Assembly: GCA_017540945.1 (NCBI GenBank)
Contig: JAFYAB010000119.1
Location: forward strand, 1 to 33,022
Reading direction: 5' to 3'
Source: Oscillospiraceae bacterium
GTDB lineage: Bacteria; Bacillota_A; Clostridia; Oscillospirales; Oscillospiraceae
DNA: 33,022 nt
This document shows, piece after piece, positions 23,110 to 33,022 of this stretch. Made by a program: the position numbers and the translations under genes. A model generated the notes under the pieces. It worked only from the letters and a program-made list of their open reading frames with translations, ran no database searches and was not told the DNA's origin. The stretch's first letter is position 1. Every line of letters begins with the position of its first letter.

Positions 23110-26100
23110 TCAGCGGCGCAGCGTCAGGCTCAGGATCAGGCCCAGCAGGCCCAGCAGGGCCAGGCCCAGGAAGCAGAAGCCCAGGACGTTGCTGCCGAAG
23201 AGGGCCCGCTCGCTGCTGCCGTCCGTTCCGATCCGCCGCAGGGCCCGGCCGCCCTCGTCCAGCTCAAAGACCGCGGTTTTCAGCTGCGCCCCCGGCTTGA
23301 CCGGCACACACCAGGCGGCGCCCTTGCCCAGCCGCAGGCTCTGGCACTTGGACAGCTCCGCGCTCTGGCCGTTGATGCGGTTGACCCGCTGACGGACCAT
23401 GCCGCTCTCCGCGCCGCCGGTCATGACCAGGTTGAAGGACAGGCTTTCGTCGGCGCAGACCACGCAGCCCTCCTCCGTGGGCAGGACCACCAGGGCCGCG
23501 TCCGAGCTGTAACGGAGCTTGCCGTCCCGGACCTCCGCCAGCAGCCTGCCGCTTTCGTCCAGGACGCGCAGCGTGCCGGGCTCCGTCAGCAGCACGCGCT
23601 GATAGAAGCCGGTCTCCGAGGCGGCCTCCGGGGCCTTTTGGATCAGCAGCTCCCGCAGGGCAGCCAGGCTGTGGTCCAGGAAGCGGCCCCGGACCGTGCC
23701 GGCCAGGAAGTGATCCTTGCCGCTGCGCCCCAGACCCAGGGGCAGCTCCGTCAGCAGATCCGCGCTGTTGAGCAGATTGTGGATGCCCGGGAGCTTTTCC
23801 GCGTGACCGGGCTTTCTCAGATACCGGGGGGTGCAGAAGCTATAGGCGAAGACGGTCTCCGGCTCCGCCAGCTCCTCCTGCAGGATGGGGACCAGCCGCC
23901 CGATGGCCGCGCCGCCCAGCCCCGCGCCGCAGAGGAAGAAGCTGCTGTGGAAGCGGTCAAAATCATAGGCGGCGGCCCGGGCGTCCAGATAGGAGCCCAG
24001 CCTGCTGCGGAAGAGCTCCGCCATTTCGTCGGCGTATTGGGCGGCGTCGGGCAGCAGCGCCAGCTGCTCCTCGCCGGCGGGGCCTTCTGAGAGGACCAGG
24101 GCGAAGATCAGCCGGTCCTCCTCCTCCCAGCGGAGCAGCCGCATGCCCATGGTGGCGGTAAACTGCCCGGCGGAGAGGCTTTCCACCTCCTCGAAGCCCA
24201 GGGTCTTCAGCAGGGCGGAGGCGTGGGCCTGGTCCTCGCAGAGCCAGGCCGCGGCCATGGCCAGGTCCGGCTGATAGTCCGCGGGGGCCTGCTTGAACAG
24301 ATCCCAGCCCCAGTCCAGAGAGAGGGTCTCCCCCCCGAGCTCCGCGGAGAGGGTCCGCACCGCGCCCCCTGCGCCCCCCAGCCAGAGGGCCTGCAGCCGC
24401 TCCCAGCCGCGGTCCCGGAGCTCCTGCAAGCTCATGGAGTCGGCGTGCTCCGTCCAGAGCTCCTCGAGGGAGGCGCTCCGCTCATAGCGCACGCAGCCGT
24501 TTTGGAAGCGGAAGACGTAGATCGCCTGATAATCGGGGAGGGACTGGCCGTTGAAGACCAGCAGCTCCGGCTGTCCGTCCCCGTCCATGTCCCGCAGGGC
24601 AAAGCGGGGCGGGTCGTCGTTGTAGTTCAGACTGCCGTAGCCCAGCTCCAGATCCCCGTCGCTGAGGAAGCGCTCGTTGAGCACGAAGTCCCGGAAGGCC
24701 TCGTTCCAGTCCGCAAAGCGCAGCCTGGCGCCGCCGGTGGCGGCAAAGCCGTAGCCGCCCTCCTCGTTGTAGAGTCCGGCGCTGCTGAGCCGGGCGCTGT
24801 TCCTGCCGCTGACGGAATAGACCCAGCCCAGGAAGGACTCCGGAAGCCGATGGCACGGGGCCCCCTCCGCGTAGTAGTAGAAGGTCCTGCCGCCCTGGAG
24901 CCCGTAGGGCTCGGCGGCGACCATGCGGGTGCGGCCGTAGCCCGGGTCCGTGATGTAGGTATCCCCCGGGGTCTCCCGGGCCTCCAGCGACTCCAGCTCG
25001 AAGCTCCAGGTGTAGGCGTTGAGCTTCCGGGGATTCGTGAAGCGGCCGGTGAAGTTGCAGTAGTAGAGGGTCCCGTCGTAGCCCTCGCCCCCCTCGCCCA
25101 TGTTGGCGTCGGTGAAGCGGCCCCGGAAGCTGCCGTCCTCGTTCAGCACCAGCTGCGTGCCCCAGCCGCCGAAGCCGCTGGCGAACAGGTAGCGGGCGGG
25201 GATCTGGCTGAAAAGCTCCGGCGCGGGCTCCGGCTCCGGCTCCGGGGGCAGCTCGCCGCCGTTCTTGTAGAGGGTCCAGTAGAAGCTCCCGTCGATCTCC
25301 TCCCAGCCCAGCACCGCGCAGGCGCTGTACTCGTACTCCGCGTTGGAGGAGGGGTAGCGGCTGGAGAAGTCCGTGTCGAAGTAGAGGTCGTAGACCACCG
25401 TGTATCTGCCCTTCTCCAGGGAAGCGGCGCTGGGCACCAGCTTCAGGAAGGGATCCCCCACGCCGCCGATGGGCCGGTAGTAATACTCCCTGCCGTCCTC
25501 GGCCTTCTGGCGGTAGAAGAGATGCGCCTCCTCGCCCTGGGCGATCTGGGCCAGCAGGGCGGCGGGGGAGAGGTGGAAGATGTTCCGGGCGATCCAGTCC
25601 ACGCTCTCGGCGTCATAGGCCGCGTAGGAGCCCAGATTGCCCTGGCCCGCGCTCCAGCCCCTGGGGTCGTTCTCGCCCCAGTAGTCCGTCTGCCCCTGGC
25701 CGGGATAGATGGAGAAGCGGACGCAGGAGCCGTTGTTGACGATGCTGTTGAGCAGATTCGTCCCGTCCGTGCCGGCGCTCTCGGCGTCGTAGGCGCAATA
25801 GGGGTCCTCGCTTCGATACCAGCTCACGAACTGGGTCAAAAAGCGGATCAGACTGTCCGGCAGGGCGTCCGGGTCCAGCTCCGCGGCGCCCTCGGCGGGG
25901 GCGGTCTGCCGCAGCAGGGAGAAGAGAGCGTCGGAGACGGTCATGCCCAGCTCCGGGTTCCCGGCCAGAAAGGCCTCCAGGTCCTCGTCTCCCCGCTGGG
26001 AGCAGAGCACCACGGCGGAGAGCTTGTCCAGCAGCGCGGCGCGCAGCTGCTGGTAGCGCTCCTCGCTGATCTCCTCCTGGGCGTTGATCGGGCCCTGCCA

Positions 26101-26841
26101 GCATTGGATCACCTGGTTGTATTCCCCGTTTTCGTAGCTGGGCGAGCTGGTCCAGCCCAGCTCCCGGGTGCATTCCAGCCCCTCGCCCCGGGGGACGAAG
26201 TGGAGATAGGTCTTGTACCAGCTCTCGTCGCCGGAGCTGGTGTAGGCGTAGAGCTCCTTGCTGCCCTCCACCTGGAACAGATCGTAATAGAAGCCGCCGC
26301 CGGCCAGCACGTCCCAGGCCACGTCGCAGAGGGTGCGCAGCGCCCCGTCCCAGGTCAGGATGTAGAGCCGGGACATGTAGACGTAGCGCTCCGTGGGATC
26401 CACAGCCACGTAGATCAGCTCCGGGGTCTCGTCGCCCCAGCAGTCCAGAAGGGCCACGGGCTTCGGGGTCTTCTCCGGGCTCTGCGCGTCGTATTGGGAG
26501 CCGCCCTTCTGCCAGTAATAGCCCTCGATGCCTTCCCGGTTCCGGCTCAGATGCTCCAGATAGGCCGCCAGGGCCTCTCCGCTGTGATCCGCCGGCTCCG
26601 CGGCGGGGTTGTCGTTCTCCGTGACCGGCGGGGCCTCCGTGCCGCTGTCCTGGCCCGGGAAGCCGGAGGCGAGCTCCGAGAGCGGAAAGCGCTCCACCGC
26701 GTTGACCTGGAGCAGAACGCCCAGTACGCCGGTGACGAGCATGACCAGGGAGAGCAGCAGCGCCGCCAGCCGCGGCCCCCGTATGCCTGCCCGCCGGGGC
26801 GGATTGCCGCCCTGCCGGGGATAAGTGCCCGGATATTCCAT
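23110..26841 (-). CDS. Large membrane protein with a degenerate lipase-3-like domain
   Basis: This 1243-residue protein has a N-terminal membrane segment (about residues 22-50) and another at the C-terminus (about 1215-1240). The region between is predicted to be outside the cell. It includes two calcium-type stretches (LLDCWGDETPEL early and LRDMDGDGQPELL near 745). The part from about 890 to 1040 has the order of a class 3 lipase: FALVLSEG, then CGAGLGGA (residues 971-978) at the nucleophile elbow, then FCTPRYL and NLLNSADLLTELPLG. Class 3 lipases have GHSLGG at the elbow, and here the H and S positions are A973 and G974. A beta-rich C-terminal region follows. It has a strong AAGGAGGG site and a consensus promoter. 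It may bind lipid or polymer rather than cleave it. Confidence 0.65.
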   Translation of the reverse strand: MEYPGTYPRQGGNPPRRAGIRGPRLAALLLSLVMLVTGVLGVLLQVNAVERFPLSELASGFPGQDSGTEAPPVTENDNPAAEPADHSGEALAAYLEHLSRNREGIEGYYWQKGGSQYDAQSPEKTPKPVALLDCWGDETPELIYVAVDPTERYVYMSRLYILTWDGALRTLCDVAWDVLAGGGFYYDLFQVEGSKELYAYTSSGDESWYKTYLHFVPRGEGLECTRELGWTSSPSYENGEYNQVIQCWQGPINAQEEISEERYQQLRAALLDKLSAVVLCSQRGDEDLEAFLAGNPELGMTVSDALFSLLRQTAPAEGAAELDPDALPDSLIRFLTQFVSWYRSEDPYCAYDAESAGTDGTNLLNSIVNNGSCVRFSIYPGQGQTDYWGENDPRGWSAGQGNLGSYAAYDAESVDWIARNIFHLSPAALLAQIAQGEEAHLFYRQKAEDGREYYYRPIGGVGDPFLKLVPSAASLEKGRYTVVYDLYFDTDFSSRYPSSNAEYEYSACAVLGWEEIDGSFYWTLYKNGGELPPEPEPEPAPELFSQIPARYLFASGFGGWGTQLVLNEDGSFRGRFTDANMGEGGEGYDGTLYYCNFTGRFTNPRKLNAYTWSFELESLEARETPGDTYITDPGYGRTRMVAAEPYGLQGGRTFYYYAEGAPCHRLPESFLGWVYSVSGRNSARLSSAGLYNEEGGYGFAATGGARLRFADWNEAFRDFVLNERFLSDGDLELGYGSLNYNDDPPRFALRDMDGDGQPELLVFNGQSLPDYQAIYVFRFQNGCVRYERSASLEELWTEHADSMSLQELRDRGWERLQALWLGGAGGAVRTLSAELGGETLSLDWGWDLFKQAPADYQPDLAMAAAWLCEDQAHASALLKTLGFEEVESLSAGQFTATMGMRLLRWEEEDRLIFALVLSEGPAGEEQLALLPDAAQYADEMAELFRSRLGSYLDARAAAYDFDRFHSSFFLCGAGLGGAAIGRLVPILQEELAEPETVFAYSFCTPRYLRKPGHAEKLPGIHNLLNSADLLTELPLGLGRSGKDHFLAGTVRGRFLDHSLAALRELLIQKAPEAASETGFYQRVLLTEPGTLRVLDESGRLLAEVRDGKLRYSSDAALVVLPTEEGCVVCADESLSFNLVMTGGAESGMVRQRVNRINGQSAELSKCQSLRLGKGAAWCVPVKPGAQLKTAVFELDEGGRALRRIGTDGSSERALFGSNVLGFCFLGLALLGLLGLILSLTLRR

Positions 26842-26976: not shown

Positions 26977-27738
26977 TTGACTGTTTTTCTGCTGAAGCTT
27001 GCCGCGGCCGTTTTGATGCTGACGGATCATCTGGGCATTGTCCTCTATCAACACCAGGCCATCGGCTTTGAGCTCTATCACTGGATGCGGACCCTGGGCC
27101 GCTTTGCCTTTCCCATCTACTGCTTCCTGCTGGCGGAGGGCTTCCGCCATCTGCGGAAGGACCCGAAGCGGCTCTGCGGCCACATGCTGCTGCTCCTGGC
27201 CCTGGCGGTGTGCAGCGAGCCCTTCTTCGATCAGCTGCTGACCCAGCGCTTTGACGACGCCGCCCATCAGAGCGTCATCCTCACCCTGATTCTGGGCTTC
27301 GGCGGTCTCTGGCTGTCGGAGTGCTTCCGGGACCGGCCCCTGCCGCGCTTTGCGGTGCTGCTCTTCGCGGGGGCCCTGGGCCGCTTCCTGCATACGGACT
27401 ATGGCGTCGCCGGCGTCTTTCTGATCTTCGGCTGCTATTTCTATCTGGAGCGCTGGGGGCAGCGGGAATTCGGGCGGCGGCTGTTGGGCGTCCTCTGCCT
27501 GATTGTGGGCTATCTGCTCTTTTACAGCTGGGTCCGCGCGGGATTTGGCGGTCCGGCGGCGGTTTGCTCCCGCCTCTTCGCCATGGGCGATTATCTCTTT
27601 CCCTTCCTGCTGCTGATCCCGGCGCTGGCCTCCTACGGCGGGAGGCCGGGCCGGCGAAACAAGCTTCTGCACCGCTGTTATCAGTGCTTCTACCCGGCCC
27701 ATCTGGCGGCCCTCTATCTGCTGGGCCTGCTGCTTTGA
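26977..27738 (+). CDS. TraX family membrane protein
   Basis: A 253-residue membrane protein with about seven hydrophobic segments. It carries KLAAAVLMLTDHLGIVLY at the start and MRTLGRFAFPIYCFLLAEGF, the conserved part of TraX. TraX acetylates F pilin in conjugation, but chromosomal homologues in Clostridia are common and of unknown role; a membrane acyltransferase is the usual guess. The start is TTG, with an ideal AGGAGGG seven bases upstream; an ATG at 26970 is too close to it. It is divergent from the large membrane protein, and the Card1-like gene follows 37 bases downstream. Confidence 0.87.
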   Translation: MTVFLLKLAAAVLMLTDHLGIVLYQHQAIGFELYHWMRTLGRFAFPIYCFLLAEGFRHLRKDPKRLCGHMLLLLALAVCSEPFFDQLLTQRFDDAAHQSVILTLILGFGGLWLSECFRDRPLPRFAVLLFAGALGRFLHTDYGVAGVFLIFGCYFYLERWGQREFGRRLLGVLCLIVGYLLFYSWVRAGFGGPAAVCSRLFAMGDYLFPFLLLIPALASYGGRPGRRNKLLHRCYQCFYPAHLAALYLLGLLL

Positions 27739-27775: not shown

Positions 27776-28951
27776 ATGGAAACCCTGATCGAGCTCTATG
27801 ACGAGCGCCCCCTGGAGAATGTGCTGGGGGTGGAGGTCTTCCGCCCGGAGCGGGTGGTCTACGTCTGCCCCGCCAGGATCGCCTCGGACCGGGCCCTGCA
27901 CCGGCGGCTGCGGAGCTACTTCGCCCACCGGGGTCAGGAGATCAGCCTGGAATTCGTCAAGGCGGACATGTACCGGTCCGACGCCATCCTCAAGACCCTG
28001 CGGAAGATCGTGGCGCGCTATCCCGACTGCGCCATGGACATCACCGGCGGCACCGACGCCGTGCTCTACGCCGCGGGGATGCTGGGGGCGGAGACTCCCA
28101 TCCCGGCCTTCACCTACAGCCGCAAAAAAAACCGCTTCTATGAGATCCAGAACGCCGACTTCGCCGCGGGCCTGCCCTGTGAGGTGGTCTATTCCGTGGA
28201 GGACTGCATCCGGATGGCGGGGGGCGAACTGCGGCCGGGCCGGGTGAACAACCAGCTCCTGGCGGACTATGTGGAGGATATCCAGCCCTTCTACCGCCTC
28301 TATCTGAAGCATCGCCGGGAATGGGTGCGGCTCGTCGGCTACATCCAGCGCCTCTCCGCCTGGACGGGGGAGGGGCCCGCCCCCCTGTCGGTCCGGGGAG
28401 ATTACAACGTGAAGGGGGAGCGGGGCTCCCGCATCGACGCGCCGGAGGACGCCCTGCGGGCCCTGCGGAACATCGGCTTTCTGCGGGAGCTCAGCATCGA
28501 CCGGGAGAACGGCGTCAGCTTTTGCTTCCGCGATCTGCAGATCCGAAGCTGGCTGCGGGACGTGGGCGTCGTGCTGGAGCTCTTCGTCTATCAGTGCTGC
28601 GTGGAGCTGGGGATCTTCGACGACGTTCGCCTCAGCGCCGTGGTAGACTGGGAGGAGAGCGCGGGCCGCAACGCGGTGTCCAACGAGCTGGACGTGATGT
28701 GCACCCGGGGCGTCACCCCCGTGTTCATCAGCTGCAAGACCGGCGAGGCGAAGTCCGAGGCCCTCAACGAGCTGGCGATCCTGCGGGACCGCTTCGGCGG
28801 GGGCATCGCCCGGGCCGCCATCGTCACCGCGGAGCAGGTGGGGGAGCTGACCCGCAGCCGCGCCGCCGAGCTGAATATTCAAGTCATCGATCTGAACGAC
28901 CTGGACGGAAACCGCCTTTCCAAACGCATCAAAAAGCTGATGCAGTCATAG
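27776..28951 (+). CDS. Card1/Can2-like CARF nuclease (DUF1887 family)
   Basis: A 391-residue cytoplasmic protein. The N-terminal half is a CARF-like fold, with YVCPARIASDRALHRRL and AMDITGGTDAVLYAAGML matching the cyclic-oligoadenylate-binding loop of DUF1887 proteins. The C-terminal half is a restriction-endonuclease-like domain with NELDVM (E304, D306) and VFISCKTG (K321). Relatives such as Card1 are type III CRISPR effectors activated by cyclic tetra-adenylate and cut DNA or RNA. The acidic residue of the ExK half-motif is serine (S319) here. No CRISPR array or cas gene is visible in this window. GAGG precedes the ATG. Confidence 0.87.
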   Translation: METLIELYDERPLENVLGVEVFRPERVVYVCPARIASDRALHRRLRSYFAHRGQEISLEFVKADMYRSDAILKTLRKIVARYPDCAMDITGGTDAVLYAAGMLGAETPIPAFTYSRKKNRFYEIQNADFAAGLPCEVVYSVEDCIRMAGGELRPGRVNNQLLADYVEDIQPFYRLYLKHRREWVRLVGYIQRLSAWTGEGPAPLSVRGDYNVKGERGSRIDAPEDALRALRNIGFLRELSIDRENGVSFCFRDLQIRSWLRDVGVVLELFVYQCCVELGIFDDVRLSAVVDWEESAGRNAVSNELDVMCTRGVTPVFISCKTGEAKSEALNELAILRDRFGGGIARAAIVTAEQVGELTRSRAAELNIQVIDLNDLDGNRLSKRIKKLMQS

Positions 28952-28983: not shown

Positions 28984-29862
28984 ATGAAAACAACGAAGCT
29001 GATCCTCTGCCTGCTGCTGGCCCTGAGCCTGCTGCTGGCCGCCTGTGAAACGACGCCTGCCGCCCCCCGGAGCACCGAGTCCAAAACGGAGCCCGCCCAG
29101 AGCGAGGCCCCCAACGGCCCCGGCCCCGCCGACTGGTCTTCCCTGAGCGGCAAGGGCAAGGTGGGCACCGTGCTGCCCGATTTCTCCTTGGACACCGCCG
29201 ACGGCGGCGTCTTCACCCTCTCCGAGGTCCTGAAGGACCACGAGCTGGTGTTCATCAATCTCTGGGCCACCTGGTGCGGCCCCTGCCAGCGGGAGTTCCC
29301 CTTCCTGGAGGCCGCCTATCAGGCCAACCGGGACCGGGTGGCGGTGGTCGCCGTCTCCGTGGAGGAGCGCGACACCCCCGAGGTGCTGCGGAAATACGCG
29401 GAGGAGAACCGGCTGAGCTTCCCCCTGGCTCAGGACCGGGACTACGCCCTGCTCGGGACCTTCAACGTCAGCGCCATCCCCACCAGTCTGCTGGTGGACC
29501 GGAGCCGCACCGTGCTCTGGATGGAGACCGGCGCCAAGGACTCCGAGCAGGCCTTCACCGAGCTGTTCAACACCTACCTCAACAGCGGAGAGTCCGGCGC
29601 GAACCAGAAGCGCTACGAGGTCACGATCCTGGACCAGAACGGCGCTCCGGTGCCCGGCTGTGCCGTCAACTTCTGCACCGAGGAGAGCTGCGTCCCGATG
29701 GTTTCGGACGAGACCGGCAGGGTGTGCTACTACGCGGACCCCTACGCCTATCGGGTGCAGCTGCTCTCCGTTCCCGAGGGCTATGATTACACGGGCTCCG
29801 ACTCCCTGTTCATGAAGGCCGAGGGAGATCAGATGACCATCACCGTCACCAAGCTGGGATGA
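28984..29862 (+). CDS. TlpA-type thioredoxin lipoprotein with C-terminal beta domain
   Basis: A 292-residue exported lipoprotein. The lipobox is LLAAC with lipidated C21, followed by a Ser/Pro-rich linker. A TlpA/AhpC-TSA-type thioredoxin domain spans about residues 55-200, with WCGPC (C98, C101) and the cis-proline region SAIPTSLLVD. From about 208 to the end there is a CarboxypepD_reg-like beta domain with four cysteines, which may itself form disulfides. It would act as a thiol-disulfide reductase on the outer face of the membrane. CGGAGG precedes the ATG. Its stop overlaps the next gene, so the two are coupled. Confidence 0.92.
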   Translation: MKTTKLILCLLLALSLLLAACETTPAAPRSTESKTEPAQSEAPNGPGPADWSSLSGKGKVGTVLPDFSLDTADGGVFTLSEVLKDHELVFINLWATWCGPCQREFPFLEAAYQANRDRVAVVAVSVEERDTPEVLRKYAEENRLSFPLAQDRDYALLGTFNVSAIPTSLLVDRSRTVLWMETGAKDSEQAFTELFNTYLNSGESGANQKRYEVTILDQNGAPVPGCAVNFCTEESCVPMVSDETGRVCYYADPYAYRVQLLSVPEGYDYTGSDSLFMKAEGDQMTITVTKLG

Positions 29863-30032
29863 GCCGGGCGGGAACAAGGGCGCCCCGGAGGGCGCGCCGC
29901 ATCACGGTCCTGCGGGGCCTGCTGCTGATCCTGGCCCTGGGCCTGATCGTCCTGGGCGTGCTGAACGGCGGCCTGCGGGACGTCTTCGTGAAAGCCGCAA
30001 ATCTGTGTACGGAGTGTATCGGCCTTGGATAA
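29859..30032 (+). CDS. CD1871A family CXXC motif-containing small membrane protein
   Basis: A 57-residue protein with one transmembrane segment (about residues 18-38) after a basic start, then NLCTECIGLG at the end. The basic N-terminus suggests the CxxC end is outside. This pattern is that of the CD1871A family, named after a Clostridioides difficile protein and of unknown function. It overlaps the lipoprotein stop by 4 bases, and the next gene begins 8 bases before its end. Its placement between two thioredoxin-type genes suggests a small redox partner in the same complex. Confidence 0.85.
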   Translation: MSRAGTRAPRRARRITVLRGLLLILALGLIVLGVLNGGLRDVFVKAANLCTECIGLG

Positions 30033-31485
30033 GCTGAAAACATGGTGGGCCGCCCACCGGCCCGGCACCCGCCGCCTGGTCCAGCTCTATGCCGCCCTGC
30101 TCTGCAACGCCCATCTCAAAGGCTTCGGGGAGGGCGGGCTCTACCGGGGCAGGACCAAGGGCCTCTGCGTTCCCGGCCTCAACTGCTACTCCTGCCCCGC
30201 CGCCATCGGAGCCTGCCCCCTGGGGGCCCTGCAAAACGCGGTGGCGGCCTCGGCCAGGCGGCCGGCCTTTTACGCGGTGGGGGTCCTGCTGCTCTTCGGC
30301 CTGACCCTGGGCCGGGTGATCTGCGGCTGGGCCTGTCCCTTCGGCCTGCTCCAGGAGCTGCTATATAAGCTCCCCACCGGGAAGCTGAAAAAGAGCCGCC
30401 TGACCCGGGCTCTGACCTGGGTGAAATACGGCCTGCTGACCCTGCTGGTGCTGGCGCTGCCCCTGTACTTCGCCTTCCGCCGCCTCCCCCTGCCGGCCTT
30501 CTGTAAGTATGTCTGCCCCGCCGGGACCCTGGAGGGGGCCCTGGGCCTGCTGCTGCACCCCGCCAACCGGGAGAGTCTGGGGAGCGGGCTGGGCCTGCTC
30601 TTCGACTGGAAGCTCCTGGTCCTGGTCCTGGTGCTGATCGCCTGCGTCTTTCTGTACCGGGCCTTCTGCCGCTTCCTCTGTCCCCTGGGCGCCCTCTACG
30701 GTCTGATGACCCGCCTGGCCCTGCTGGGGGTGAAGCTGGACCCGGAGCGCTGTACGGAATGCGGTGTGTGCCGCTCCCTCTGCCCCGTGGACATCCGCCG
30801 GGTCGGAGACCGGGAGTGCGTGGCCTGCGGTAAGTGTATCGATCGGTGCCCCGAGGCTGCCATCCGCTTCCGGGCCGGGAAGATCGTCCTTCACGCCCCC
30901 GTCGCAGGGGCGGCCAACAGCCGCCCGCCCAAGGCAGAAGCAAAACGGAAACGGACCCTCGCCTGGGCCCTTGCCCTGGCGCTTCTTCTGGGAACGCTGG
31001 TTTATGTCAACTTCCTTGATCGGGTCGATGCCGCGCCTGTCCCGGCTGAGACCCAGGCTGCTGCCCTTGGGAACGCCGTGGGCCAGACCCTGCCGGACTT
31101 CTCCGTCGATACGCTGGAGGGCGGGAGCTTCACCCTCTCGGAGCACCGGGGGCAGGTGACGGTCCTGAACCTCTGGGCCACCTGGTGCGGCCCCTGCGTC
31201 AGGGAGCTGCCCCACTTCGAGGCCTTCGCCGCCGCCCACCCGGACGTCTGCGTTCTGGCCATCCACGGCCCCATGATCACCGAGGACGTCCCGGCCTGGC
31301 TGGCGGAAGCCCATTACAGCCTTCCCTTCGCCCTGGACGGGGAGGGGAGCATGACCGCCCTGCTGGGCGCCTCCAACGTCCTGCCCCACACGGTGGTCCT
31401 GGACCGCTCCGGGACCGTGATCTACAACGCCCCCGGCGCCCTCACCCCGGAGCGGCTGGAGGAGCTGTATCAAAGCGCTCCGTAA
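30025..31485 (+). CDS. Membrane 4Fe-4S protein fused to an extracytoplasmic thioredoxin
   Basis: A 486-residue fusion. The N-terminal part is a NapH/YccM-like membrane iron-sulfur protein, with NCYSCPAAIGACPLGALQ near residue 52, three hydrophobic segments, and the inward motifs GWACPFGLLQE, CKYVCPAG and CRFLCPLG. Two classical 4Fe-4S sites follow: C243/C246/C249/C253 and C265/C268/C271/C275. After another transmembrane segment (about 315-335) comes a TlpA-type thioredoxin with WCGPC (C388, C391). Electrons could therefore pass from cytoplasmic ferredoxin through the membrane clusters to an external thioredoxin. The start is TTG, as no ATG is possible, with GGAG upstream. It ends the operon. 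Confidence 0.9.
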   Translation: MDKLKTWWAAHRPGTRRLVQLYAALLCNAHLKGFGEGGLYRGRTKGLCVPGLNCYSCPAAIGACPLGALQNAVAASARRPAFYAVGVLLLFGLTLGRVICGWACPFGLLQELLYKLPTGKLKKSRLTRALTWVKYGLLTLLVLALPLYFAFRRLPLPAFCKYVCPAGTLEGALGLLLHPANRESLGSGLGLLFDWKLLVLVLVLIACVFLYRAFCRFLCPLGALYGLMTRLALLGVKLDPERCTECGVCRSLCPVDIRRVGDRECVACGKCIDRCPEAAIRFRAGKIVLHAPVAGAANSRPPKAEAKRKRTLAWALALALLLGTLVYVNFLDRVDAAPVPAETQAAALGNAVGQTLPDFSVDTLEGGSFTLSEHRGQVTVLNLWATWCGPCVRELPHFEAFAAAHPDVCVLAIHGPMITEDVPAWLAEAHYSLPFALDGEGSMTALLGASNVLPHTVVLDRSGTVIYNAPGALTPERLEELYQSAP

Positions 31486-31522: not shown

Positions 31523-31679
31523 GCCTTCCCCCTCGGGGGAAGGTGGCATCCGGCGTCTCACGGAAGCCGGATGACGGATGAGGAGCGCTGCATGTTATTT
31601 GCTCGTTGGTGGGAGCACTCTGTCGTCGATACCTCCCCTCATCCGGCGCTTTGTGCCACCTTCGCCCCAAAGGGAAGGC
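31523..31679. repeat. GCCTTCCCC-type inverted-repeat element (MITE-like), copy 1
   Basis: GCCTTCCCCCTCGGGGGAAG at the left is mirrored by a 25-base right end (31655-31679). The right arm (31617-31679) is nearly identical, in inverted orientation, to 32896-32960. The gap 31486-31706 otherwise holds no gene. Confidence 0.78.
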
Positions 31680-31706
31680 ATCCCGCCACATCCGAATCTG
31701 TAACGC

Positions 31707-31758: not shown

Positions 31759-32862
31759 TCAGCCCGTGGTGTCTCCGCCCAAGAGCTCGCCGGTGTAGTA
31801 GTCCACCAGGAAGTAGGTGCTGGTGGTGAATTCGTCGTACTTCTTCTCGATGCTCAGCTTCCAGCACAGACGGCTCACGTCGGGGGCCTGGAGATCGACG
31901 CCGGCGTGGTCGGTGAACATCCAGTTGGGCAGGGCCACCACCTTCCGGATGCTGACGCCTTCACCGGAGCCCAGGTCGAAGCCCTGGGCCCGGAGAGCCT
32001 CCAGGGCCTCCTCCTCGGTCAGCGGGACGTCCCCGGGCTGGTGGTCGTCCAGCAGGGGCACGTAGAAGACCACGCAGTCCTCCAGGGTCCCGGACACGGG
32101 GTTGATGGCCACCCGCACGCACTCATACCAGGAATACAGCCCGGGCTCCACCTCCCGGCAGAAGTCATAGGACCAAAACTGCTCGTCGTACTTCTCGCAG
32201 CCCGTCATCACGTAGCCCTGCTCCACGGGCAGGGACTCGTAATAGCGCCGGGCCAGGGCGTCTGCCTCCGCCTGGGTCCGGCAGGCCGCCGTGTCGGAGA
32301 GGACCCAGCGGATCCCGGTCATCCCCAGGAAGACCCCCCGTTCAGCGTCAAATACGACCTCGATCCCGTCCTCTCCGTCGGGATAGGAGACATCAACCTC
32401 CTCCCGGTTCCAATACAGATGCTTCTGCCGCCGGACCGTGACGGCCCCGTCGGAGAGCTCGGTGATCCCGGCGTTGGCGAGGATCTCCCGGCCCCTTTGG
32501 ATGAACCAGGCGTCGGAGAGCTTCTCCGGCTCCGCGGACTCCGCGGCGCTGCTCTCCGTCTGGGAGAACGGATAGCTCTGCTCCGTGTGAACGGAGACGT
32601 TGCCCTGCTCCGGGTCAAGCGTATAGGGTTCCGGCTCCGGCAGCTTCCACCGCTCGTAGGCTGCGTAGCCTCCGACGACCAGCGAGGCCAGCAGGGCTAC
32701 GCAGGCCGCCGCCAGCAGGGCCCGGCGCAGGACGGGGTGCCGCTTTGCCTTCCGTTCCTCCGTCCGCTCCGCGGCCCGGGCTACCCCGGCCCAGATCCGG
32801 TCCTCGGTCCCGGGCTCCGGCGCGGCCTTGTCGTAGGCCGCAACGATCTTATCGTTTTTCAT
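31759..32862 (-). CDS. Single-pass membrane protein with an anti-sigma-like layout
   Basis: A 367-residue protein with a short charged cytoplasmic start (MKNDKIVAAYDKAAPEPGTE), one transmembrane segment (about residues 47-70), an acidic linker, and an extracellular domain of about 270 residues. The outside part has ITELSDGAVTVRR and repeated EEALEALRAQGFDL-like segments. It resembles PepSY/YcdB-like repeats only weakly. The layout matches anti-sigma or signal-transducing membrane proteins, and a sigma-factor gene might lie upstream, beyond the window. I chose the ATG at 32862, preceded by AAAGGAG, instead of a longer frame that runs through a repeat. Confidence 0.6.
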   Translation of the reverse strand: MKNDKIVAAYDKAAPEPGTEDRIWAGVARAAERTEERKAKRHPVLRRALLAAACVALLASLVVGGYAAYERWKLPEPEPYTLDPEQGNVSVHTEQSYPFSQTESSAAESAEPEKLSDAWFIQRGREILANAGITELSDGAVTVRRQKHLYWNREEVDVSYPDGEDGIEVVFDAERGVFLGMTGIRWVLSDTAACRTQAEADALARRYYESLPVEQGYVMTGCEKYDEQFWSYDFCREVEPGLYSWYECVRVAINPVSGTLEDCVVFYVPLLDDHQPGDVPLTEEEALEALRAQGFDLGSGEGVSIRKVVALPNWMFTDHAGVDLQAPDVSRLCWKLSIEKKYDEFTTSTYFLVDYYTGELLGGDTTG

Positions 32863-32895
32863 GTTGAACTCCTTTCTGTTTGGATTTGTCGGGAT

Positions 32896-32960
32896 GCCTT
32901 CCCCTTGGGGGGAAGGTGGCGCGAAGCGCCGGATGAGGGGAGGTATCGACGACAGAGTCG
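32896..32960. repeat. GCCTTCCCC-type element, copy 2 (inverted relative to copy 1)
   Basis: The arm matches the right part of the copy at 31523-31679, including GCGCCGGATGAGGGGAGG and TATCGACGACAGAG. Together the two copies bracket the membrane-protein gene. Confidence 0.78.
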
Positions 32961-32963
32961 CTC

Positions 32964-33022
32964 CGTAGGGGCCGATGCCCACATCGGCCCTTTCCCCGGT
33001 CCACAGGGAGGGCCGATGTGGG
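32964..33022. repeat. CGTAGGGGCCGA palindromic repeat (cut by the window end)
   Basis: CGTAGGGGCCGATGCCCAC and a following complementary arm (AGGGCCGATGTGGG) match the element at 16076-16168. The right end lies beyond the window. Confidence 0.8.

What the first reader, a model, noticed from the sequence alone, without database searches (positions are those of the whole stretch)
28984..31485. A three-gene membrane redox relay: thioredoxin lipoprotein, tiny CxxC protein, 4Fe-4S/thioredoxin fusion
The genes overlap (4 and 8 bases) and all point to disulfide chemistry outside the cell. Seen: WCGPC in two exported thioredoxins, NLCTEC at the end of a 57-residue membrane protein, and a NapH-like membrane protein with two 4Fe-4S sites fused to one of the thioredoxins. 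Inferred: ferredoxin-level electrons cross the membrane through Fe-S clusters to reduce extracytoplasmic disulfides, which would replace the CcdA/DsbD route. The Fe-S/thioredoxin fusion makes that path direct. The small CxxC protein could shuttle electrons between the two thioredoxins.
Basis: partly seen in the sequence, partly recalled or inferred. Interest (0 to 1): 0.75.

Follow-up and report, generated by a model that had tools for sequence, protein, structure and literature searches.

The report
Iron-sulfur membrane wire for exported thioredoxins
A conserved gene cluster of anaerobic gut bacteria looks like an iron-sulfur wire that carries electrons through the membrane to thioredoxins outside the cell, probably doing the job that the CcdA/DsbD proteins do in other bacteria; the wiring has not been tested in the laboratory.

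Summary
In detail: three overlapping genes (28984-31485) encode a thioredoxin lipoprotein, a 57-residue CxxC membrane protein of NCBIfam family CD1871A, and a NapH-like Fe-S membrane protein fused to a second thioredoxin. It is a conserved module. In 243 sampled genomes of the class, CD1871A is above cut-off in 36, and all 36 have a high-scoring module NapH (37 genomes have one). A thioredoxin gene is nearby at 35 of 38 loci. The module NapH keeps the 12 cysteines aligned with E. coli NapH/YccM and adds six invariant ones, placed outside by topology; CD1871A adds two. CcdA/DsbD is above cut-off in 0 of 80 genomes with fusion-type loci, against 125 of 243 sampled genomes. TGA stands at the first active-site Cys codon in five neighbouring thioredoxin genes and one CD1871A gene; SelB is present in the three of those genomes checked. 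I infer that ferredoxin-level electrons cross via Fe-S clusters to reduce extracytoplasmic disulfides. Correction: CD1871A belongs to NapH, not to a relay between two thioredoxins. The plain operon was already noted, without mechanism in the parts I read, in a 2025 preprint. Clusters and direction are unproven.

The parts
28984..29862 (+). TlpA/ResA-type thioredoxin lipoprotein, 292 aa: lipobox LAAC, Trx domain with WCGPC (C98/C101), and a C-terminal all-beta domain with a C231-x4-C236 pair on adjacent strands
   Evidence: AF2 model mean pLDDT 88.8; C231 in 48 of 48 and C236 in 43 of 48 aligned rows
29275..29286 (+). codons of CGPC in the lipoprotein thioredoxin
   Evidence: C98 and C101 in 48 of 48
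29674..29691 (+). codons of C231-x4-C236 in the beta domain, a possible second relay disulfide
29859..30032 (+). CD1871A-family small membrane protein, 57 aa: basic N-terminus, one TM helix, C-terminal CTECIGLG outside
   Evidence: NF040920 36.1 bits, cut-off 32; TM 17-35; K at -13 in 78 of 78 and E at -6 in 77 of 78 relatives (its pattern fixed the cysteines and GLG)
30006..30017 (+). codons of CTEC in the small protein
   Evidence: a TGA stands in place of the first Cys codon in one relative, L117
30025..31485 (+). NapH-like Fe-S membrane protein fused to an extracytoplasmic thioredoxin, 486 aa
30166..30216 (+). outer cysteines C48, C54, C57, C64 (CVPGLNCYSCPAAIGACP), without counterpart in E. 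coli NapH and YccM
30322..30336 (+). inner CxxxCP pair C100/C104, shared with NapH
30502..30516 (+). outer CxxxCP pair C160/C164, without counterpart in E. coli NapH and YccM
30667..30681 (+). inner CxxxCP pair C215/C219, shared with NapH
30751..30849 (+). cytoplasmic ferredoxin domain, eight cysteines C243-C275 (two 4Fe-4S sites)
31066..31482 (+). extracytoplasmic ResA-like thioredoxin domain of the fusion, WCGPC at C388/C391

Best explanation
The three genes make an extracytoplasmic thiol-reducing system whose membrane conduit is an iron-sulfur wire instead of the thiol relay of CcdA/DsbD. Shown by sequence: a cytoplasmic two-cluster ferredoxin domain, four inner membrane cysteines shared with NapH, six extra invariant cysteines on the outer face, a near-obligate one-helix partner (CD1871A) ending in an outer CxxC, and thioredoxin domains outside. 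Inferred: reduced ferredoxin feeds the ferredoxin domain; electrons pass an inner-leaflet cluster (C100/C104/C215/C219) to one or more outer clusters (C48/C54/C57/C64 and C160/C164). The CD1871A CxxC sits at the exit, either completing an outer cluster or acting as the cluster-to-disulfide converter, as the active-site disulfide of ferredoxin:thioredoxin reductase does (recalled). It hands electron pairs to the thioredoxin. In this two-thioredoxin version the fused thioredoxin would play the part of cDsbD, and the lipoprotein, with its thioredoxin and its C-x4-C beta domain, the part of the distributing domain nDsbD.
For: CD1871A/NapH pairing both ways: 38 of 38 loci; in 243 genomes all 36 with NF040920 above cut-off are among the 37 with a module NapH at E<=4e-78, the next match being 2e-35. 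Trx nearby at 35 of 38 loci. PF02683 (CcdA/DsbD) above cut-off in 0 of 80 genomes with fusion-type loci against 125 of 243; family-level control 6 of 52 with the module against 56 of 148 without (Fisher p 4e-4). Six outer cysteines in 35 of 35 NapH copies from other loci (33 of them not fused to Trx) and invariant in 87 fusion sequences, without counterpart in E. coli NapH and YccM. Topology: K+R fraction 0.21/0.06/0.22/0.08/0.11-0.15/0.03 along the chain, so thioredoxin outside. TGA at the first Cys of CxxC in 5 neighbouring thioredoxin genes (4 genomes) and 1 CD1871A gene; SelB above cut-off in 3 of 3 of those genomes checked. Orphan CD1871A copy L179, with no NapH or Trx nearby, has lost both cysteines. 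Reductive-type Trx fold: best matches ResA, Etrx2. 10 of 12 separate same-strand upstream Trx proteins at fusion loci carry the C-x4-C beta domain, against 0 of 67 separate Trx hits in the other sets.
Against: No biochemical data. Direction is argued only from CcdA anticorrelation and ResA-like folds. 10 of 36 and 6 of 52 module genomes also carry PF02683, so replacement is not strict for the module as a whole; among the 80 genomes with fusion-type loci 5 have sub-cut-off PF02683 matches, and DsbD_2 (PF13386) is above cut-off in 3 of the 50 searched. Kinship of genomes was hidden, so the Fisher values ignore shared ancestry. Most fusion genomes are MAGs and may be incomplete. The outer loop with C48-C57 has pLDDT under 50, so cluster geometry is untested. 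Three of 38 loci have no Trx nearby, the Sec-CD1871A locus among them. The hairpin after the TGA is also present in a Cys relative (L137), so it does not by itself prove selenocysteine. No genome is held for the window, so its own CcdA status is unknown.
Confidence: 0.62

Rival explanations
1. Thiol oxidation: the thioredoxins collect electrons from forming disulfides and the Fe-S protein carries them inward to a cytoplasmic acceptor (a DsbB/VKOR-like role).
For: NapH proteins are electron carriers of either direction in principle; nothing here measures direction.
Against: Trx domains are closest to reductive ResA/Etrx2/TlpA folds; CcdA/DsbD, which is reductive, is what the genomes with fusion-type loci lack. 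Low-potential clusters are poor acceptors from disulfide formation (general knowledge).
Confidence: 0.12
2. The NapH-like protein and CD1871A deliver electrons to another extracytoplasmic acceptor (flavin, metal or quinol pathway), and the thioredoxins only keep its outer cysteines reduced or help insert clusters.
For: Six outer cysteines would need a reductant; NapH in nitrate respiration works with quinol (recalled); three of 38 loci have no Trx nearby.
Against: Thioredoxin is fused to NapH in the window's branch and near it in most other loci. Neighbour clustering of 70 parsed fusion loci gave, beside the small gene, only a 24-locus cluster that includes Trx proteins and C-x4-C beta-domain proteins, a 13-locus cluster whose scanned member is a subtilase, and an 8-locus cluster whose one member read looks like an ABC ATPase; none is an obvious terminal acceptor.
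Confidence: 0.18
3. Ordinary co-annotation: a TlpA gene and a NapH gene lie together by lineage history and the CcdA absence is a lineage effect.
For: Genome kinship was not available, so shared ancestry is not excluded.
Against: Trx lies upstream at 18 and downstream or fused at 18 of the 35 loci, one locus counting in both, so adjacency was kept or re-made repeatedly; within the family of G001 the CcdA contrast persists.
Confidence: 0.08

Closest known systems
Operon of 4Fe-4S ferredoxin, TlpA disulfide reductase and CxxC protein in gut Clostridia (preprint PMC12637426, 2025)
   Same: Same three gene kinds together, with the CxxC gene in between in all instances but one; reported from gut bacteria including Blautia wexlerae and Anaerostipes hadrus; called a novel operon there.
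   Different: In the passages and the one section I read: no NapH relationship, outer cysteines, topology, CcdA comparison, selenocysteine forms, fusion or mechanism; it is treated as a biomarker for immune side effects.
DsbD / CcdA (and DipZ)
   Same: Functional plan: membrane conduit plus extracytoplasmic thioredoxin domain; nDsbD is an Ig-fold domain with C103/C109 on opposite strands of a hairpin (PMC7347389 passages); the beta domain here also puts C231/C236 on adjacent strands. DipZ C-terminal domains appear in the fold list of the lipoprotein, but with rmsd 17-19 over the whole chain.
   Different: No PF02683 domain; the conduit is Fe-S-type with ferredoxin input rather than thiol-disulfide exchange from cytoplasmic thioredoxin.
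NapH / MauN ferredoxin-type membrane proteins
   Same: Four membrane-flanking cysteines and eight ferredoxin cysteines aligned.
   Different: Below TIGR02163 and NapH cut-offs (78.4 of 213.05; 61.2 of 234); six extra outer cysteines; a CD1871A partner; thioredoxin fused or nearby.
CD1871A family CXXC motif-containing protein (NCBIfam NF040920)
   Same: The small protein is a member by score.
   Different: A named family without a function in the tool's output; here it gets a partner, a topology and a proposed role.
Ferredoxin:thioredoxin reductase (recalled)
   Same: Ferredoxin-level single electrons turned into dithiol by a cluster next to a CxxC disulfide, the proposed chemistry.
   Different: Soluble, plastid/cyanobacterial; no sequence comparison was made here.

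Membership tests
NapH/MauN (TIGR02163) | score above curated cut-off | tested here: not met
   78.4 bits against 213.05
NapH/MauN (TIGR02163) | two inner CxxxCP pairs and two 4Fe-4S ferredoxin motifs | tested here: met
   alignment with E. coli K-12 NapH and YccM
NapH/MauN (TIGR02163) | association with Nap or Mau genes | tested here: inconclusive
   Nap/Mau families were not searched for by name; clustering of 70 parsed loci showed Trx/beta-domain, subtilase-type and ATPase-like neighbour clusters
CD1871A family (NF040920) | score above curated cut-off with C-terminal CxxC | tested here: met
   36.1 bits, cut-off 32
TlpA/ResA thioredoxins | AhpC-TSA/Redoxin domain with WCxxC and exported N-terminus | tested here: met
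   Pfam above cut-off; lipobox LAAC; ResA fold match; the ResA NCBIfam subfamily cut-off itself is not reached (90.3 of 170)
DsbD/CcdA | DsbD_TM domain (PF02683) with its thiol relay | tested here: not met
   no PF02683 among the Pfam hits of the three proteins
DsbD-like function | transfer of reducing equivalents to extracytoplasmic thiols | not testable with these tools
   needs biochemistry
Bacterial selenoproteins (relatives, not the window) | in-frame TGA at a catalytic Cys position and SelB in the genome | tested here: met
   TlpA type in L133, L134, L143 (genomes G218, G148, SelB above cut-off) and CD1871A type in L117 (G096, SelB above cut-off); L108 and L109 have the TGA but their genomes were not checked for SelB
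Bacterial selenoproteins (relatives, not the window) | SECIS hairpin after the TGA | tested here: inconclusive
   a 6-7 bp hairpin with a three-base loop follows in L133, L134, L143 (-6.7 to -9.1 kcal/mol) but also in the Cys relative L137 (-7.7); eight other Cys homologues fold at 0 to -4.8. The hairpin after the CD1871A TGA is the best fold in 38- and 45-base stretches only. No shuffle control.

The most novel reading that the evidence does not exclude
A new class of transmembrane reductant export: ferredoxin-driven Fe-S wiring across the membrane with a shared outer site completed by a 57-residue partner, converting single low-potential electrons into extracytoplasmic dithiols, and standing in for CcdA/DsbD in many anaerobic gut Clostridia; in some lineages the converter or thioredoxin uses selenocysteine.
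Probability: 0.45. Interest if true: 0.88.

Novelty: new variant of a known kind. Interest (0 to 1): 0.72.

Why it matters
How bacteria without CcdA/DsbD keep thiols outside the membrane reduced is a gap for many anaerobes. This module would answer it for part of the Clostridia (36 of 243 sampled genomes) and would couple extracytoplasmic thiol chemistry directly to the ferredoxin pool. The extra cysteines, the near-obligate partner and the probable selenocysteine forms give precise residues to test. The operon is also reported in a preprint as associated with side effects of cancer immunotherapy, where its function is unknown.

Tried and rejected
Small protein as shuttle between two thioredoxins: rejected, it follows NapH irrespective of thioredoxin number.

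My first synteny script found the small gene at only a few loci because it capped ORF length; one search corrected this to 78 of 79 parsed loci, and the two others (L057, L022) were seen by eye to have it.

Trx counts, same strand within 2.6 kb: 35 of 38 class loci (misses L140, L141, L145); 19 of 22 rows of the family sample (misses L178 and L186, two rows of one locus with a broken small gene, and L179, an orphan); 14 of 14 in the order sample, where my small-gene pattern did not match 2 of 14 (L202, L204) although NF040920 did; 78 of 80 fusion-type loci (misses L055, within about 250 bases of a contig end, and L060, cut at the contig end). L157 and L158, fetched for sub-cut-off hits, are not in the 38. 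In L064, L065 and L068 NapH and Trx are separate frames but their genomes are counted in the 80.

C-x4-C beta domain: separate same-strand upstream Trx proteins exist at 12 fusion-type loci. Ten carry the motif (8 by pattern, L001 and L068 by eye); L008 (a fragment at the contig start) and L070 do not. On the opposite strand Trx proteins at 4 of 6 loci have it (L026, L029, L045, L049; not L011, L031), and L019 and L042 have it in small proteins without a Trx motif. The 0 of 67 counts Trx hits, not loci (four loci count twice), and depends on one pattern.

CcdA: the 125 positives were taken from its genome table leaving out G089 as the one sub-cut-off genome; the list of places was cut, so that choice is inferred from its E-value.

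Fold search: only thioredoxin-like domains fill the lists; the membrane part and the beta domain were not searched alone, so no statement on their folds. A standalone relative of the beta domain (L042) scores above the Pfam cut-off for SpaA, a prealbumin-like fold. Sequence search of solved structures gave matches to the ferredoxin part, none spanning the membrane helices in the 60 rows shown.

Literature: CD1871A gave 0 papers; CD1871 gave two papers, in one of which it is an ABC permease; NF040920 and CD1871 do not occur in the main text of the selenoproteome review PMC13188914. The listings named no such mechanism in the titles and abstract starts shown; of them I opened PMC12637426 and PMC13188914. 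Seen: PMC12637426 section 8 and passages; PMC13188914, PMC7347389, PMC12772354 and PMC11326576 passages only; all others as search listings.

Folding small protein and NapH as one tethered chain was considered and not run: the outer C-terminus would be joined to an inner N-terminus.
Full report
What is there. The window carries three overlapping genes on the + strand: 28984-29862 (lipoprotein with a thioredoxin domain), 29859-30032 (57 aa) and 30025-31485 (NapH-like part plus thioredoxin). Pfam and NCBIfam give Redoxin/AhpC-TSA for both thioredoxins, Fer4_5 and Fer4 for the membrane part, and CD1871A_fam (NF040920, 36.1 bits, cut-off 32) for the small protein. The two thioredoxin domains are 40% identical. 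No whole genome is held for the window.

It is a module. At 78 of the 79 loci that the script parsed a CD1871A gene ends within 400 bases of the start of the NapH-like gene; the remaining parsed locus, L057, and the unparsed one, L022, have it too on inspection. In an even sample of 243 genomes of the class of G001 (a record titled Clostridia), NF040920 is above cut-off in 36 genomes at 38 loci. All 38 have the module NapH next to it and 35 have a thioredoxin domain within 2.6 kb on the same strand, upstream, downstream or fused. Searching the same genomes with the NapH membrane part alone gives 37 genomes at E<=4e-78 and then a gap to 2e-35; the 37 are those 36 plus G228, whose small-gene hit is sub-cut-off near a contig end. 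The plain arrangement is thus thioredoxin + CD1871A + NapH-like; the window's branch has a second thioredoxin fused to NapH. A separate same-strand upstream thioredoxin, as in the window, is present at 12 of the 80 fusion-type loci. In L064, L065 and L068 the NapH part and its thioredoxin are separate overlapping frames. In P0029 and P0034 the thioredoxin is doubled.

Cysteine anatomy. In 35 NapH copies from other loci (two, L149 and L150, fused to Trx), 18 cysteines are invariant, as they are in 87 fusion sequences. Twelve align with E. coli K-12 NapH and YccM: C100/C104, C215/C219 and the eight of the ferredoxin domain. The other six, C48, C54, C57, C64, C160 and C164, have no aligned counterpart in either E. 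coli protein. Charge distribution over 87 sequences (K+R fraction 0.21 at the N-terminus, 0.06, 0.22, 0.08, then 0.11-0.15, and 0.03 after the last helix) places the first set inside and the six outside, and the thioredoxin outside. The small protein has a basic N-terminus and one helix, so its CTEC should lie outside too; over 78 relatives K(-13) is invariant and E(-6) is in 77, the cysteines and GLG having been fixed by the search pattern. Six outer cysteines plus two give eight, enough for two four-cysteine sites or for one cluster and reactive disulfides. That is a count, not a structure: the outer loop is predicted with pLDDT under 50.

Link to CcdA/DsbD. PF02683 is above cut-off in 125 of 243 sampled genomes: 10 of the 36 with the module and 115 of the 207 without (Fisher p 0.003). 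In the family of G001 the figures are 6 of 52 with and 56 of 148 without (p 4e-4). In the genomes of the 80 fusion-type loci it is 0 of 80, with 5 sub-cut-off matches. DsbD_2 (PF13386) is above cut-off in 3 of the 50 such genomes searched; the other 30 were not searched for it. Shared ancestry and incomplete MAGs weaken these p values.

Selenocysteine. In five loci of four genomes a TGA stands at the first cysteine codon of CxxC in the neighbouring thioredoxin (L133, L134, L143, L108, L109). For the three examined, a hairpin with a three-base loop follows at about +22 to +38, with one paired change between copies (-6.7 to -9.1 kcal/mol). Against its use as proof, the close Cys-containing relative L137 has it too (-7.7); eight other Cys homologues fold at 0 to -4.8 there. 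One CD1871A gene (L117/L145) has TGA at its first cysteine, with a short hairpin that is the best fold in 38- and 45-base stretches but not in longer ones. SelB is above cut-off in G096, G218 and G148 and not in G001; the genomes of L108 and L109 were not checked. I take the TlpA cases as probable selenoproteins; the CD1871A case is a single genome, could be a sequencing error, and has no thioredoxin beside it. Selenocysteine at these positions would argue for redox catalysis at CxxC. A natural counter-case: CD1871A copy L179, with no NapH or thioredoxin nearby, has lost both cysteines.

The lipoprotein. Its second domain is all-beta with C231 and C236 on adjacent strands; C231 is in 48 of 48 and C236 in 43 of 48 aligned rows. 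Ten of the 12 separate same-strand upstream thioredoxins at fusion-type loci have this C-x4-C domain and 0 of 67 separate thioredoxin hits at the other loci match the pattern. It also occurs in opposite-strand thioredoxins at four loci and in small proteins without a Trx motif beside two fusions; a standalone copy matches the prealbumin-like SpaA domain. nDsbD likewise carries C103/C109 on opposite strands of a hairpin in an Ig fold and receives electrons from the thioredoxin-fold cDsbD (PMC7347389 passages). So the two-thioredoxin branch repeats the order conduit, thioredoxin, beta-domain distributor. This is a functional parallel; no homology was shown.

Mechanism. Best supported: reduced ferredoxin gives electrons to the cytoplasmic clusters; inner and outer clusters carry them across; the CD1871A CxxC at the exit makes or shares the site that turns single electrons into a dithiol; the thioredoxins distribute it. 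Shown: parts, predicted topology, partnership, CcdA contrast. Inferred: cluster binding outside, donor, direction, role of CD1871A.

What is known. A 2025 preprint (PMC12637426; section 8 and passages read) found the 4Fe-4S + TlpA + CxxC operon in gut Clostridia as a marker for immune side effects and calls it novel; the parts I read give no mechanism. NCBI has a family model for the small protein. Searches showed no printed mechanism in their listings; they cover open-licence papers only.

Verdict. The operon itself is not new; the wiring, the NapH-plus-six-cysteines anatomy, the CcdA exclusion of the fused form and the probable selenocysteine forms were not found in print in those searches, and make a sharp testable proposal.

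Noticed in passing
27776-28951: CARF plus PDDEXK nuclease of the Card1/CARF4 kind directly upstream of the module (PADLOC 169 bits; Pfam Card1_endonuc above cut-off).
   Followed up: partly
26977-27738: TraX-family membrane protein (PF05857, 110 bits).
   Followed up: no
31617-31696 and 32879-32958: 80-base inverted repeat, arms 91% complementary, on either side of a minus-strand ORF (31759-32982 as listed).
   Followed up: no
23110-26841 (-): 1243-aa ORF, hydrophobic at both ends, with no Pfam domain above cut-off.
   Followed up: no
L133, L134, L143, L108, L109: Thioredoxin genes beside the module with TGA (probable selenocysteine) at the first active-site Cys.
   Followed up: partly
L117:1400-1720 (same gene as in L145): CD1871A gene with TGA at the first Cys of CxxC, one genome (G096).
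   Followed up: partly
P0040, P0047: Fusion proteins with two Trx domains, the second having lost its cysteines.
   Followed up: no
L022, L057: CD1871A proteins with an N-terminal extension rich in hydrophobic stretches; L057 has CKAC instead of CTEC.
   Followed up: no
L051, L054, L056, L058, L061, L063, L069, L072, L077: Members of one 13-locus cluster, mostly very large ORFs, two genes upstream of the fusion on the opposite strand in these nine loci; the one member scanned (L053) is a subtilase, PF00082.
   Followed up: partly
L019, L042: Small proteins with the C-x4-C beta domain and no Trx motif beside the fusion; L042 has a lipobox.
   Followed up: partly
genome G368: Five CD1871A loci in one genome.
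   Followed up: no
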